Of a stretch of DNA of 64,000 nt, positions 21,161-51,039 are shown in pieces. Under the pieces are notes generated by a model. The model was not told the origin of the DNA. It worked only from the letters and a program-made list of their open reading frames with translations, and searched no databases. The stretch comes from Opitutus sp. GAS368 (GTDB lineage Bacteria > Verrucomicrobiota > Verrucomicrobiia > Opitutales > Opitutaceae). Position numbers and translations under genes: made by a program. The stretch covers positions 3,207,001 to 3,271,000 of the forward strand of contig NZ_LT629735.1 of assembly GCF_900104925.1 (NCBI RefSeq), read 5' to 3'. Numbering within the stretch: position 1 is the first letter of the stretch; each line of letters begins with the position of its first letter.

Positions 21161-21188
21161 GTGGGTCAACCCGGTCTCGGCGCACCAG

Positions 21189-21207
21189 CCTTCGCCAAGG
21201 CTACGGC
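21189..21207 (-). repeat. Intergenic copy of the GCCGTAGCCTTGGCGAAGG repeat
   Basis: The minus strand reads GCCGTAGCCTTGGCGAAGG, identical over 19 bp to 42853-42871 inside gspG and with one difference to the matching part of gspH. Here it lies in non-coding DNA, which shows it is a dispersed repeat and not a pseudopilin-specific coding sequence. Confidence 0.75.
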
Positions 21208-21295
21208 CGGCGGGCCGGGCCGGCGACGAGGGCGCAGCCTCGGCGGTGCGCCCTGCCACAGGAACTGCGATGGCTGCACTTCAGCTTGATCCGCT

Positions 21296-42818: not shown

Positions 42819-43277
42819 ATGAAAACGCCCGCCGCCCGTGCTCCCTTGCCGCGCCGTAGCCTTGGCGAAGGCGGGTTCACGCTCCTTGAGATCCTCGTCG
42901 TGCTGGCCATCATCGGCCTGCTCGTCGGGCTGGTGGTGTCCAACACCGACAAGATCTTCGGCCAGAGCCAGGTGGCGGTCGCGCGGATCTTCGTCCGCGA
43001 CACGCTCAAGACCCCGCTCACCCGCTACCGGATGGACATGGGCGATTATCCTTCGACCGCCGAGGGGCTGCAGGCGCTGGTCACGCCACCGTCCGCCCGG
43101 ACCGAGGCCTGGCATGGACCCTACCTGGACGCCCCCGGCGGCCGACTGCCGACCGACCCGTGGGGCGAGCCCTACCAATACCGCTACCCCGGCATCAAGA
43201 ACCCGGGTGGTTGCGACATCTTTTCGAAGGGCCCGGACAAGGTCGCCGACACGGAGGACGACATCGGCAACTGGTGA
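42819..43277 (+). CDS. gspG: Type II secretion major pseudopilin GspG
   Basis: A 152-residue major pseudopilin. The prepilin peptidase site is GEGG-FTLLE, with Glu at mature position 5, then a hydrophobic helix ILVVLAIIGLLVGLVVS. The C-terminal part has the GspG-specific sequence MGDYPSTAEGLQAL ... DPWGEPYQYRYPG and the calcium-site region with DIFSKGPDKVADTEDDIGNW. GspG polymerises into the periplasmic pseudopilus that pushes substrates through GspD. The leader is 19 residues; its residues 8-19 (ARAPLPRRSLGEGG region) are encoded by repeat DNA that recurs in gspH and at 21189-21207. The ATG at 42819 directly abuts the preceding stop. Confidence 0.93.
   Translation: MKTPAARAPLPRRSLGEGGFTLLEILVVLAIIGLLVGLVVSNTDKIFGQSQVAVARIFVRDTLKTPLTRYRMDMGDYPSTAEGLQALVTPPSARTEAWHGPYLDAPGGRLPTDPWGEPYQYRYPGIKNPGGCDIFSKGPDKVADTEDDIGNW
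42840..42883 (+). repeat. Repeat copy inside the gspG leader
   Basis: This 44-bp segment matches 43330-43373 in gspH at 42 of 44 positions, while DNA on either side of the pair is unrelated. It encodes APLPRRSLGEGG plus the first conserved residues of the mature pseudopilin. A 19-bp part (42853-42871) is identical to an intergenic copy at 21189-21207 on the other strand. Confidence 0.8.
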
Positions 43278-43290
43278 GGCCACCCACGCC

Positions 43291-43830
43291 ATGTCTAAAA
43301 TCCATTCCATCCATGCCCGCCGGTCCCGCGCTCCCGTGCCGCGCCGCAGCCTTGGCGAAGGCGGGTTCACGCTGGTGGAAGTGATTCTCGTGCTGGCCCT
43401 GCTCGTCCTGATCATCGCGGTGCTGCTGCCCGCCGCGGGCTCGCTGCTGCGCGGCGCGCGCGGCGAGACGGCGGAGGAGACCGCCCTCGCGGTCCTGCAG
43501 GACGCGCGCCGGCAGGCCGTGCTTTCCGGCCGGGAGGTGGCCTTGCGCTACGCGCCGGCGGAACACGCGCTCGTCTGGACCGACGGGGTGCAGGACGGCC
43601 GCCGGGTCTTCGAGGACGGGAACGTGACGGTGGAGTTCCTGCGGCCGGGCGGAGGGGCCATCCTGCTCGGCGGCCAGCTCGTCGAGGCCGATCCGGTCGA
43701 CGAGATGAAATTCTACGCGGATGGCAGCTGCGAACTGATCCGCCTGCAATTGCGCCCGGCCGACGCCGCCCCGCGCGTCATCCCCATCGATCCCTGGACC
43801 TGCGCCCCGGTGCTCGCGCCGCCCGCGTAA
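43291..43830 (+). CDS. gspH: Type II secretion minor pseudopilin GspH-like
   Basis: A 179-residue pseudopilin. The cleavage site is GEGG-FTLVE, followed by the helix VILVLALLVLIIAVLLPAAGSLL. The C-terminal domain (ETALAVLQDARRQAVLSGREVALRY; FYADGSCELIRLQL) matches the GspH/minor pseudopilin pattern. The unusually long leader (25 residues) contains the same 44-bp repeat as gspG (43330-43373; APVPRRSLGEGG). GspH with I, J and K forms the tip complex of the pseudopilus. It starts 13 bp after gspG. Confidence 0.85.
   Translation: MSKIHSIHARRSRAPVPRRSLGEGGFTLVEVILVLALLVLIIAVLLPAAGSLLRGARGETAEETALAVLQDARRQAVLSGREVALRYAPAEHALVWTDGVQDGRRVFEDGNVTVEFLRPGGGAILLGGQLVEADPVDEMKFYADGSCELIRLQLRPADAAPRVIPIDPWTCAPVLAPPA
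43330..43373 (+). repeat. Repeat copy inside the gspH leader
   Basis: Second copy of the element at 42840-42883, two mismatches in 44 bp. It encodes residues 14-28 of GspH, ending just beyond the peptidase cleavage site. It overlaps coding sequence and is translated in the same frame as in gspG. Confidence 0.8.
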
Positions 43831-43872
43831 ATATCCCCGGAGCACCTGGCCAAACCAATCCGCCAACCCACC

Positions 43873-44418
43873 ATGTCCGCCGTTTCTTCTCTTATTTGTA
43901 GGAGCCTGCTTGCAGGCGATTCGGCATCCGATCCGTTGGCGGGCATTCCGAATCGCCTGCAAGCAGGCTCCTACATCCCCGGCCGCCGCGCCGCCTTCAC
44001 CCTGGTGGAGGTGCTCGTGAGCCTCGCCATCTTCGCCATGGCGGCGGTCGTGCTGGGCGCGACCTACGTCAACATCCTCACCAACTACCAGGCCGCGATG
44101 ACCCGGCCCGCGCAACAGGCCGAACTCGCGTTGCTGCGCCCGGCCCTGCTGGCCGAGCCGGACCGGGCGCGCGCGGAGAAAGGCGCCGAACAGCCGCTGC
44201 CGGGCAACCGCACCGCCCGCTGGCAATCCCGGATCGAGGAGACCGCCATCGCCGACCTGTTCGCGGTGACCTTCGAGTGGGAGATCGACGAGCCGGGCCG
44301 GCGACCGGTGACCGGGCAGGAGGAGTTTATGCTGCTCCGGCCGACCTGGTCGGACCCGGCGGGGCGCGAAAAGCTGCGCGAGGCTTCCCGGCAGCGCCTG
44401 GCCAAACGGGAGTTCTGA
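43873..44418 (+). CDS. gspI: Type II secretion minor pseudopilin GspI
   Basis: A 181-residue minor pseudopilin. The mature N-terminus is FTLVEVLVSLAIFAMAAVVLGATYVNIL, typical of GspI, preceded by RRAA instead of the usual Gly at -1. The leader would be 41 residues long. Residues 9-35 of it are encoded by a 79-bp element with perfect 28-bp inverted arms (43897-43924 and 43948-43975). The rest fits GspI (AELALLRPALLAEPDRARAEKGAEQPLPG; VTFEWEIDEPG). An ATG downstream of the repeat is not available before the hydrophobic helix (the first is M56), so the leader with the repeat is probably translated. It follows gspH by 42 bp. Confidence 0.85.
   Translation: MSAVSSLICRSLLAGDSASDPLAGIPNRLQAGSYIPGRRAAFTLVEVLVSLAIFAMAAVVLGATYVNILTNYQAAMTRPAQQAELALLRPALLAEPDRARAEKGAEQPLPGNRTARWQSRIEETAIADLFAVTFEWEIDEPGRRPVTGQEEFMLLRPTWSDPAGREKLREASRQRLAKREF
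43897..43975. repeat. REP-like element with perfect 28-bp inverted arms inside gspI
   Basis: The left arm starts TGTAGGAGCCTGCTTGCAGG (43897-43916, continuing to 43924) and its exact complement ends the element (43948-43975), with a 23-bp spacer. A shorter relative, TGTAGGAGCCTGC-TT-GCAGGCTCCTACA, is intergenic at 51012-51039. It is read through in frame as residues 9-35 of the GspI leader. Confidence 0.9.
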
Positions 44419-44419
44419 C

Positions 44420-45079
44420 GTGCAAGCGCAGCCATATCTCTATTTCAAGCGGCGGCGGGGTTTCACGCTGGTGGAAGTCCTCCTGGCTTTCACGCTGCTC
44501 ACGGCCCTGCTGCTCGCGCTGAACGTGTTCGTGCTCTCGATGGGCGAGATCTGGGGCCGGAACCGTGAGAAGCGCCTGTTCGAGCAGCATGTGCGTGCGG
44601 TCAGCCGTTACGTGGAGGACCTGCTGCGCCGCGCGGTGCAGCCTCCGGCGGAGAGCGCCGCCATGGACGCCACGGAGATCCGCCTGCCCGCCGGCGCCAA
44701 CGAGGCCCTGCTGACCTTCGAGCTGCCCGCCGGCGACCGCCGTCTCGTCTGGCCGGACCACCCGCTGCCGGACGTGCGTTGTGCATTCGCCGCCCGTCCG
44801 GGGCTGGGCCTCGTGCTCTACTGGCAGTCACGCCTCGAGCTGAAGTTTGCCGACGATCCGCCGCGGGTGACGGTGTTGTCGCCCTTCGTGACCGGCTTGG
44901 ACTACGATTACTTCAACGCCAACTACCGCGCCTGGCAGAGCCAGCCGGTGCTCCAGCGCGACCCCGCGGGCCGCTGGCTGACCCCGGACCGCCTGCGGCT
45001 GCACTTCCGCCACGGCGAATACTCCGCCGAGACCGCGGTGAACGTGCCGCGGGTCACGGAAGGCCTGCCGCCCTTCTGA
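44420..45079 (+). CDS. gspJ: Type II secretion minor pseudopilin GspJ
   Basis: A 219-residue minor pseudopilin. The site is KRRRG-FTLVE with Glu at +5, then VLLAFTLLTALLLALNVFVLSM. The rest has the wide beta-rich GspJ-type domain (DYDYFNANYRAWQSQPV near the C-terminus). The leader is short (14 residues) and, unlike gspG, H, I and K, contains no repeat. The start codon is GTG at 44420, one base after the gspI stop. Confidence 0.82.
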   Translation: MQAQPYLYFKRRRGFTLVEVLLAFTLLTALLLALNVFVLSMGEIWGRNREKRLFEQHVRAVSRYVEDLLRRAVQPPAESAAMDATEIRLPAGANEALLTFELPAGDRRLVWPDHPLPDVRCAFAARPGLGLVLYWQSRLELKFADDPPRVTVLSPFVTGLDYDYFNANYRAWQSQPVLQRDPAGRWLTPDRLRLHFRHGEYSAETAVNVPRVTEGLPPF

Positions 45080-45091
45080 TACTGCTTGGAC

Positions 45092-46270
45092 ATGGGCATG
45101 ATTTCCCCAGCGACACCCCTTTCGGCACCCCTCTCCAGAGGGGAACTGCGCCAGCGGAGGATTGGATCCCCTCTGAAGAGGGGTGGCGCGATAGCGCCGG
45201 GGTGTGTTGGCCACCCGCTCCGCCGCCCGCGCGGTGCCGTGATCGTGATGGTGCTCATCACCATCCTGGTCGCCTCCCTGCTGCTCGCCCGCTTCATGGA
45301 GCGCACCACGACGGAGCTGTTGGTGGAGGCGCGCGCCGCGCAGGCCGTGCGCCTGCGGGGCGACGCCTACTCGGCGCTGGAGGTCACGCTGGCCGTGCTG
45401 GCCGATTACCGCGCGGCCGACGGCGGCCTCTGGGCGCCCGCCCAGGGCTGGGGTGACCCGTTCGCCTGGGCCCGCTACGAGCCCCGCGCGGGCGTGACCG
45501 TCGCCGTCGCGTTCGAGGATGAGAGCGGCAAGCCCTCGCTGCCGCGCCTCGATACGCCGGGCCTGCAAAACCTCGGCGAGCTGCTGGGCCTGGCGCCGGA
45601 TGACGCCGCCCGGCTGGCCGATGCGCTGTTGACCTGGACGCAACCGGACCACGTGCCCGCGACGCTCGGGAGCGACCTGCGGAGCTACGAGCGCGCGGAT
45701 CCACCGCACCATCCGCCGCAACGCGCCCTGCGCTCGTTCGACGAACTGGCCGCGATTGCGGTGGCCCGGGACTTCTTCTACGACAAGGCCGGTCATCCCA
45801 CCGAACTGCGGGCGCAGTTCGCGCAGAGCGTGTCGCTCTACGATTATCCTGCGGCGAACCTGAACGCCGGGCAGCCGCTGGCCCTGGCCTTTGCCGGCCT
45901 CGATGAGACCCAGAGCCGCCGGCTCACCGACTACCTCGGCGGCAGGACCCGTCCCCGCGGCACCCCGCCGTTTTTCCGCTCGGCGGCCGAGACCGCGGCG
46001 ATCCTCGGCGCCGGCGCACCGGGCCTTGGCACCGAGGTGCGGTGCCTGCGCATCCGGGTGCGGGTCCGCGAGGGCGCGGCCGTCTTCGGCCTCACCGCCG
46101 TGGTGTCGCCCCCCGGGGGGGCGGTGATCGCGGCGGAACCGTCCCCGGACAACGCGGCCAAGGAGAAACCCGCCGCCCCCGGGCCGGCGAAAAGCCTGGC
46201 CTATCCGTTCACGATCCTCGACCTGCAGGAAACCATGGAGCCGCTGGCGGCACCGGGAGGCGCGGCATGA
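45092..46270 (+). CDS. gspK: Type II secretion minor pseudopilin GspK
   Basis: A 392-residue protein of the GspK type. The hydrophobic segment is AVIVMVLITILVASLLLARF with Glu of METTTE-like sequence following. The large C-terminal domain (LPRLDTPGLQNLGELLGLAPDDAARLADALLTWTQPD; FDELAAIAVARDFF; SVSLYDYPAANLNAG) is the GspK pattern. It caps the pseudopilus tip. The leader before RPRG-AVIV is 48 residues, most of it (about 12-42) encoded by an inverted-repeat element (45126-45185 and flanks). The ATG at 45092 was chosen; a TTG at 45086 is possible. It overlaps gspL by 4 bp. Confidence 0.85.
   Translation: MGMISPATPLSAPLSRGELRQRRIGSPLKRGGAIAPGCVGHPLRRPRGAVIVMVLITILVASLLLARFMERTTTELLVEARAAQAVRLRGDAYSALEVTLAVLADYRAADGGLWAPAQGWGDPFAWARYEPRAGVTVAVAFEDESGKPSLPRLDTPGLQNLGELLGLAPDDAARLADALLTWTQPDHVPATLGSDLRSYERADPPHHPPQRALRSFDELAAIAVARDFFYDKAGHPTELRAQFAQSVSLYDYPAANLNAGQPLALAFAGLDETQSRRLTDYLGGRTRPRGTPPFFRSAAETAAILGAGAPGLGTEVRCLRIRVRVREGAAVFGLTAVVSPPGGAVIAAEPSPDNAAKEKPAAPGPAKSLAYPFTILDLQETMEPLAAPGGAA
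45126..45185. repeat. Inverted repeat element inside the gspK leader
   Basis: CACCCCTCTCCAGAGGGGA (45126-45144) pairs with TCCCCTCTGAAGAGGGGTG (45167-45185) at 18 of 19 positions. Each arm is itself a small hairpin (CCCTCT...AGAGGG). A related single unit lies upstream of gspF at 50969-50989. Here it is translated as part of the GspK leader (SRGELRQRRIGSPLKRGG). Confidence 0.8.
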
Positions 46271-50968: not shown

Positions 50969-50989
50969 CACCCCTCTTCATAGAGGGGA
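50969..50989. repeat. Hairpin unit upstream of gspF, related to the gspK leader repeat
   Basis: CACCCCTCTTCATAGAGGGGA has the same stem (CCCCTCT/AGAGGGG) as the arms at 45126-45144 and 45167-45185. It lies in the leader between gspE and gspF. Confidence 0.7.
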
Positions 50990-51011: not shown

Positions 51012-51039
51012 TGTAGGAGCCTGCTTGCAGGCTCCTACA
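51012..51039. repeat. Perfect hairpin related to the gspI leader repeat
   Basis: TGTAGGAGCCTGC, a TT loop, and the exact complement. The arm equals the outer 13 bp of the long inverted repeat at 43897-43975. It is intergenic, between the gspE stop (51071) and the gspF start. Confidence 0.85.

What the first reader, a model, noticed from the sequence alone, without database searches (positions are those of the whole stretch)
42819..45240. Repeat DNA of three kinds translated inside the leaders of four neighbouring pseudopilins
The leaders of gspG and gspH contain a 44-bp segment (42/44 identical) that also has a 19-bp intergenic copy at 21189-21207. The gspI leader contains a perfect 28-bp inverted repeat whose short form is intergenic at 51012-51039. 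The gspK leader contains a third inverted repeat with a relative at 50969-50989. Only gspJ lacks one. Prepilin peptidase should remove each leader, so the mature pilins would be unaffected. Leaders may be a tolerated landing place for mobile repeats, or the repeats may regulate translation of this operon.
Basis: partly seen in the sequence, partly recalled or inferred. Interest (0 to 1): 0.75.

Follow-up and report, generated by a model that had tools for sequence, protein, structure and literature searches.

The report
Mobile palindromes inside pilin leader peptides
In this bacterium and its relatives, short repeated DNA palindromes keep turning up in the disposable front end of pilin-like secretion proteins, the part that should be cut off before the protein is used, so this small stretch of gene appears to tolerate inserts much as non-coding DNA does.

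Summary
The leaders of gspG and gspH carry one palindromic repeat (REP-A), gspI an inverted pair (REPIN-B), gspK another (REPIN-C), gspJ none. Genome counts are 40, 156 and 53 matches against 0, 1 and 0 control matches. The genome encodes REP-associated transposases. No start codon lies between repeat and cleavage site in gspG, H or I, so part of each repeat must be translated.

The pattern goes beyond the finding. Two more prepilins here carry REPs, one of a fourth family, D. In 90 orthologous loci, 27 of 420 leader regions hold a strong inverted repeat, against 1 of 420 shuffled, 1 of 411 mature-coding and 3 of 247 ordinary gene 5' regions, none of the 3 translated. The repeats are mostly unrelated. 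A same-genus relative has three elements of another family (51 matches) in its gspI, J and K leaders.

Best reading: prepilin leaders tolerate REP/REPIN insertion. A conserved regulatory role is less likely. Intragenic REPs are known, including in Opitutus terrae (PMC3733652); I found no report of the concentration in prepilin leaders. Mobility, translation and processing are untested.

The parts
42819..43277 (+). gspG, major pseudopilin; leader codons 42819-42875 (MKTPAARAPLPRRSLGEGG), mature part from Phe
   Evidence: sequence; Pfam T2SSG and N_methyl
42852..42874 (+). REP-A core in the gspG leader, codes for RRSLGEGG up to the -1 Gly
43291..43830 (+). gspH-like pseudopilin; leader 43291-43365
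   Evidence: Pfam GspH and N_methyl below cut-off; position in operon
43342..43364 (+). REP-A core in the gspH leader
43873..44418 (+). gspI-like pseudopilin; 41-residue leader 43873-43995
   Evidence: N_methyl; 119 of 142 genomes, own included, have a match
43897..43975 (+). REPIN-B (two inverted REP-B units) in the gspI leader
   Evidence: fold z -7.2
44420..45079 (+). gspJ-like pseudopilin, 14-residue leader, no repeat
   Evidence: N_methyl
45092..46270 (+). gspK-like pseudopilin; leader 45092-45235, mature part AVIVMVLITI
   Evidence: Pfam T2SSK_1st
45126..45185 (+). REPIN-C (two inverted REP-C units) in the gspK leader
   Evidence: fold z -2.7
21186..21208 (-). REP-A copy outside called genes, 2 mismatches
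50969..50989 (.). REP-C relative upstream of the likely start (50896) of a gspF-like gene on the minus strand
51012..51039 (.). short palindromic form of REP-B outside called genes

Best explanation
The repeats are members of several high-copy REP/REPIN families of this genome. RAYT-type transposases are probably what spreads them (inferred). Prepilin leaders lie at the gene's 5' end, need only some basic residues and a small residue before the cleavage site (general knowledge), and should be removed by prepilin peptidase. An in-frame insertion there lengthens or replaces the leader without changing the mature pseudopilin, so selection does not remove it. Leaders therefore collect REPs far more often than other coding sequence. 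Shown: repeat identity and copy number; translation of at least part of the repeat in gspG, H, I and K if only ATG, GTG and TTG start genes; excess over shuffles, mature coding DNA and ordinary gene 5' ends; mostly unrelated families in relatives; longer gene junctions at gspI and gspK. Inferred: the insertion step, removal by the peptidase, neutrality.
For: Copy numbers against controls. REP-A hairpin: 93% of cells paired and 25 cells changed on both sides against a shuffled mean of 7.1, 0 of 500 shuffles as high. RAYT genes: nine Y1_Tnp matches, five tested, three over the NCBIfam cut-off. In 90 orthologous loci (own included) 27 of 420 leader regions hold a strong inverted repeat against 1 of 420 base shuffles and 1 of 411 mature-coding; 23 of 27 leave no start codon between repeat and cleavage site, and in 12 of 27 the whole repeat must be translated. 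Ordinary genes of ten relatives: 3 of 247 matched 5' regions, all three with the repeat upstream of the start, and 0 of 247 in the first 50 codons; leaders of the same ten genomes 9 of 46; Fisher P 4e-6, and 23 of 420 against 0 of 247 for translated repeats, P 3e-5. G017 has three elements of a 51-match family in gspI, J and K leaders, and the core of that family flanks a RAYT on both sides in the window's genome. Family D sits in three different prepilin leaders of three genomes. Junctions: H-I 165 nt vs median 37 of 86; J-K 159 vs 59 of 73.
Against: The G-H junction is not longer than the median. No close strain with an empty site was found; the best GspI match is 63% identical. None of 62 listed REP-A copies in G037, G069 and G080 lies at a prepilin leader. 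No A, B or C copy directly flanks a RAYT here. Inside this genome, evidence independent of the given operon is modest: two more leaders against 0.19 expected (P 0.016), but D was found by looking in leaders; without D it is one against about 0.17, P about 0.15 (my arithmetic). Two of the five covariation measures do not exceed shuffles. The gene caller tends to place starts after repeats, which favours my reading. Several REPs in one operon may partly reflect REP-rich genomes.
Confidence: 0.78

Rival explanations
1. The repeats are kept because their RNA hairpins regulate translation or mRNA stability of the minor pseudopilins, setting the ratio of G to H, I, J and K.
For: The gspI hairpin begins 24 nt after the ATG and its region folds at -80.8 kcal/mol, z -7.2; gspK z -2.7. 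Strong inverted repeats are absent from 82 gspG leader regions and present in 27 of 338 others; chance about 0.003, post hoc.
Against: Families, positions and genes differ from relative to relative, 73 of 90 loci have no strong inverted repeat in any leader examined, and the gspG REP-A adds no special structure (z -0.6).
Confidence: 0.12
2. The repeats lie in untranslated spacers and the pseudopilins start at unrecognised codons after them, so nothing is translated.
For: REPs at annotated N-termini are often mis-called starts (PMC3733652, section 15 read). The own gspF-like gene has REPs just upstream of its likely start.
Against: No ATG/GTG/TTG between repeat and cleavage site in gspG, H or I, nor in 23 of 27 strong cases; starting inside the mature part would lose the cleavage site.
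Confidence: 0.06
3. The gspG/gspH repeat is shared by local duplication or gene conversion of an ordinary leader; only gspI and gspK hold inserted repeats.
For: Similarity extends over about 48 nt, beyond the REP core; the G-H junction length is ordinary.
Against: The core occurs 40 times in the genome, and a third prepilin far away has it in the same frame and place. This may be true together with the main reading.
Confidence: 0.15

Closest known systems
Intragenic GTAG-type REPs of Opitutus terrae and others (PMC3733652; section 15 and passages read)
   Same: Short high-copy palindromes, single or paired, read in frame inside genes; O. terrae has the most intragenic GTAG repeats in that survey.
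   Different: The paper stresses DNA synthesis and repair genes and doubts many N-terminal cases; 'pilin', 'leader' and 'signal peptide' do not occur in its main text. Here N-terminal leaders are the hot spot and downstream starts are largely excluded.
Rickettsia palindromic elements (RPE) and Wolbachia counterparts
   Same: Palindromic DNA inserted in frame in many coding genes (as described in PMC3733652, passages seen; the original papers were not read).
   Different: Nothing in the passages seen reports RPEs concentrated in a cleaved leader; families and host phylum differ.
REPINs with RAYT transposases in Pseudomonas (PMC3116915, search listing and start of abstract only)
   Same: Inverted pairs of REPs in a genome with RAYT genes.
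   Different: REPs are named as extragenic; here several elements are translated.

Membership tests
REP/REPIN | short palindrome in many copies per genome | tested here: met
   40, 156, 53 and 43 matches for A-D; controls 0, 1, 0, 0
REP/REPIN | inverted pairs (REPIN) at recurring spacing | tested here: met
   B and C pairs at recurring spacings; REP-A is single, so it is a REP but not a REPIN
REP/REPIN | terminal GTAG or CGTC tag | tested here: inconclusive
   B starts GTAG; C and D do not; A holds GTAG inside the element only
REP/REPIN | RAYT gene in the same genome | tested here: met
   NF047646: three of five tested proteins over cut-off, of nine Y1_Tnp matches
REP/REPIN | RAYT directly flanked by the same REP | tested here: not met
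   not for A, B or C (nearest B about 520 bp away); the REP core of G017's leaders does flank a RAYT here on both sides
REP/REPIN | demonstrated mobility | not testable with these tools
   no strain series with empty and filled sites
Protein-coding palindromes (RPE-like behaviour) | element read in frame inside otherwise intact genes | tested here: met
   leaders; also IspG, GH3, S9 peptidase, YbeY and others
Prepilin leader | G or A at -1, Phe at +1, Glu at +5, hydrophobic stretch | tested here: met
   G, H, I, J; gspK reads RG|AVIVMV and lacks Phe and Glu, as GspK proteins often do (recalled)
Prepilin leader | cleavage by prepilin peptidase | not testable with these tools
   needs protein work

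The most novel reading that the evidence does not exclude
REPs are not only tolerated but make leaders: they bring a start codon at their edge (GTG in family D and in G017 gspK, TTG before REP-A), basic residues and, for REP-A, the Gly at -1. RAYT-driven repeats would thus repeatedly replace prepilin leaders across the order, and REP-A (RRSLGEGG|F) would be a recurrent, functional, transposon-derived prepilin leader.
Probability: 0.27. Interest if true: 0.72.

Novelty: new variant of a known kind. Interest (0 to 1): 0.52.

Why it matters
It names a class of coding sequence, the removable prepilin leader, that takes up mobile palindromes more readily than the other coding DNA examined here. That gives a natural measure of which residues of a leader matter to prepilin peptidase and to membrane targeting. 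It offers a simple explanation for oddly long and variable annotated leaders. It also provides many natural insertion experiments for testing whether REPs are neutral passengers or change translation.

Tried and rejected
Chance: rejected by shuffles and reversed-pattern controls. Conserved regulatory hairpin: rejected as a family-wide function because 73 of 90 loci lack a strong one and families differ. Mis-called starts: rejected for gspG, H and I. General attraction of REP-A to prepilins: in G037, G069 and G080, 0 of 62 listed copies are at a leader (compared by eye). REP-A fused to a GGFT-coding motif in the genome-contig collection: 28 matches in 26 stretches, of which three read as prepilins (L269 Opitutaceae, L270 Parcubacteria, L280 Opitutia); the others do not by eye and were not studied. 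The same motif in 142 genomes, own included: 12 hits, five exact, all five prepilin leaders (own three, G018, G014); of the seven with one mismatch one (L294) reads as a prepilin and six do not. The pattern itself asks for the GFT motif, so this is biased; L280 and the G018 hit have the same peptide and are probably one genome. My simple gene caller makes antisense shadow ORFs in this GC-rich DNA, so the 36 rows are not all real; I use only those with a recognisable protein. My notebook says 24 of 27 cases lack a downstream start; the table gives 23, used here. Rows dropped: gspK of L192, L207, L231, L239 and L262, where the motif pick was wrong; regions shorter than 120 nt; places beyond the 90 loci fetched. 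Three genomes (G012, G014, G081) give two loci each. One pattern was counted in G065 and G072 (50 and 44 matches, controls 9 and 1); in G059 and G025, whose leader repeats are other families, it gave 1 match each, below the controls of 6 and 2. Only about 150 of 292 family A-D matches were studied in context for B (first 100 listed) and D (not fetched).
Full report
Observation. Every sequence claim of the finding holds. The window is bases 3,207,001-3,271,000 of a single-contig 4,150,783-bp genome. gspG and gspH carry REP-A, gspI a REPIN-B, gspK a REPIN-C, and gspJ none. Genome-wide there are 40 REP-A matches (control 0), 156 REP-B (control 1) and 53 REP-C (control 0). B and C occur largely as inverted pairs. 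Of 137 elements seen in fetched stretches, 87 lie outside called genes, 14 overlap one and 36 are inside one (the caller over-predicts). An alignment of 30 of the 40 REP-A copies, in which no gaps arose, supports a hairpin: 93% of cells paired and 25 cells changed on both sides against a shuffled mean of 7.1, 0 of 500 as high; two of the five measures (pairs with a change on both sides, further pair types) do not exceed shuffles. Strong inverted repeats are rare: the same scorer finds 8 in the 64-kb window, of which two are the gspI and gspK leaders, two lie inside called genes and four lie outside them.

Translation. gspG, gspH and gspI have no ATG, GTG or TTG between the repeat and the cleavage site. 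In gspK the starts before the cleavage site are upstream of the repeat; the GTG and ATG codons further on lie inside the hydrophobic stretch and would lose the cleavage site. At least part of every repeat is therefore translated if standard starts are used. In contrast, the gspF-like gene of the same locus has a REP-C relative and a REP-B form upstream of its likely start, outside the protein.

Same genome, other prepilins. Among 34 N_methyl matches (gspK is a 35th prepilin not matched by that model), a prepilin at 2016707 (-) reads APSPLPRRSLGAGG|FTLVE with REP-A in the same frame and place as in gspG and gspH. A prepilin at 2008840 (-) carries a fourth element, D, whose 5' edge supplies in-frame GTG codons. 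D has 43 matches in this genome, 54 in G023 and 386 in G062, with no control match. So 6 of 35 leaders carry a REP element of four families. With about 170 elements (my estimate from 292 matches) and 150 nt per leader, 0.2 would be expected; P is about 1e-7. That figure includes the four elements for which the operon was picked. Without them it is two against 0.19, P 0.016, and D was found by looking in leaders; without D as well it is one against about 0.17, P about 0.15 (my arithmetic). The stronger independent evidence comes from relatives.

Relatives. 119 of 142 genomes, own included, have a GspI match. I took 90 loci (own included) and examined 420 leader regions of 150 nt: G 82, H 86, I 90, J 81, K 81. 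27 hold an inverted repeat of score 12 or more, against 1 of 420 base shuffles and 1 of 411 mature-coding stretches. They fall in 17 of the 90 loci and in genes G 0, H 5, I 5, J 7, K 10; two of the 27 are the window's own. In 23 of 27 no start codon (four or more codons before the cleavage site) lies between repeat and cleavage site; in 12 of 27 the entire repeat must be translated. The repeats are mostly unrelated: only eight pairs among the 27 match at E below 0.001, and these include one family in different genes, D in gspI of L224 and gspK of L236, and another in gspI and gspJ of L204. L204 is from G017, of the same genus; its family has 51 matches in that genome and sits in the gspI, gspJ and gspK leaders. 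The core of that family flanks both sides of a RAYT gene at 4060860 in the window's genome. Over all loci, with or without repeats, the median distance from cleavage site to nearest start is 11-16 codons for G, H, I and J. The H-I junction of the window is 165 nt against a median of 37 (86 loci), and J-K 159 against 59 (73 loci); G-H is 88 against 88 (80 loci). Extra length is thus visible for gspI and gspK but not for gspH.

Ordinary genes as control. I fetched twenty arbitrary 20-kb stretches from ten of these relatives and called 247 genes in 19 of them. In a window placed like the leader windows (-105 to +45 around the start), 3 of 247 hold a strong inverted repeat, all three upstream of the start and none necessarily translated; in the first 50 codons there are 0 of 247. 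In the same ten genomes the leader regions give 9 of 46. Fisher P is 4e-6 for that comparison, 0.0015 for 27 of 420 against 3 of 247, and 3e-5 for 23 of 420 against 0 of 247 translated. The caller tends to put a start after a repeat, so the zero is partly built in; the 9 of 46 against 3 of 247 does not depend on this as strongly.

REPs elsewhere in coding DNA. REPs also sit in recognisable proteins of this genome: an S9 peptidase, a TPR membrane protein, a PrmC-like methyltransferase, a GH3 glycosidase, a secretin-like protein and IspG (families; PrmC by eye), YbeY with two different REPs, and a DsbD-like protein (named by eye). This fits the published finding that O. terrae has the most intragenic GTAG repeats of the genomes surveyed (PMC3733652, section 15 and passages read). 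That paper regards many N-terminal cases as mis-annotation and does not mention pilins in its main text. Searches for 'prepilin' with 'repetitive extragenic palindromic' (1 paper), 'pseudopilin' with 'palindromic' (15, of which 10 listed) and 'signal peptide' with REP terms (2, one being PMC3733652) showed no paper on this subject by title and abstract (listings only). I therefore know of no report of the leader hot spot in that library.

Mechanism. The most economical account is insertion by REP mobility followed by weak selection, because the leader should be removed and its length is loosely constrained. Regulation cannot be excluded: the gspI leader RNA folds far better than shuffles (z -7.2), gspK moderately (z -2.7), gspG not (z -0.6). 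The absence of strong inverted repeats from 82 gspG leader regions (about 0.003, post hoc) suggests that the major pseudopilin does not tolerate them, which would fit a cost in translation.

Limits. Gene starts, cleavage and mobility are inferred. No empty-site strain was available. The relatives are unnamed and partly draft genomes; the gspI leader of L204 contains a run of N. REP-A is not drawn to prepilins in all genomes: 0 of 62 listed copies in three relatives.

Noticed in passing
L065/L023, genome 391875-392474 (+): The rRNA endonuclease gene ybeY appears to carry two different REPs in frame, one of family C and one of family A.
   Followed up: partly
genome 3143004-3145049 (-), L149: IspG (GcpE) contains a single REP-B unit in frame at residues 382-388, beyond its best Pfam stretch 15-290.
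   Followed up: partly
L178-L267 gspG leaders: None of 82 gspG leader regions has a strong inverted repeat, against 27 of 338 for H-K; the major pseudopilin may be protected.
   Followed up: partly
L270, reverse strand: A Parcubacteria MAG has a prepilin with REP-A directly before the cleavage site (AHRSLGEGG|FTLVELLVV), so the same REP core may cross phyla.
   Followed up: no
genome 1734444-1734902 and 3396045-3396503: Two identical Y1_Tnp genes, IS200-like by eye, besides the RAYT-like ones.
   Followed up: no
genome 2018314-2019288 (-): An alanine-rich protein with a likely membrane segment seems to hold two REP-A derived stretches, PPVALAKGG and SAEASAKAE.
   Followed up: no
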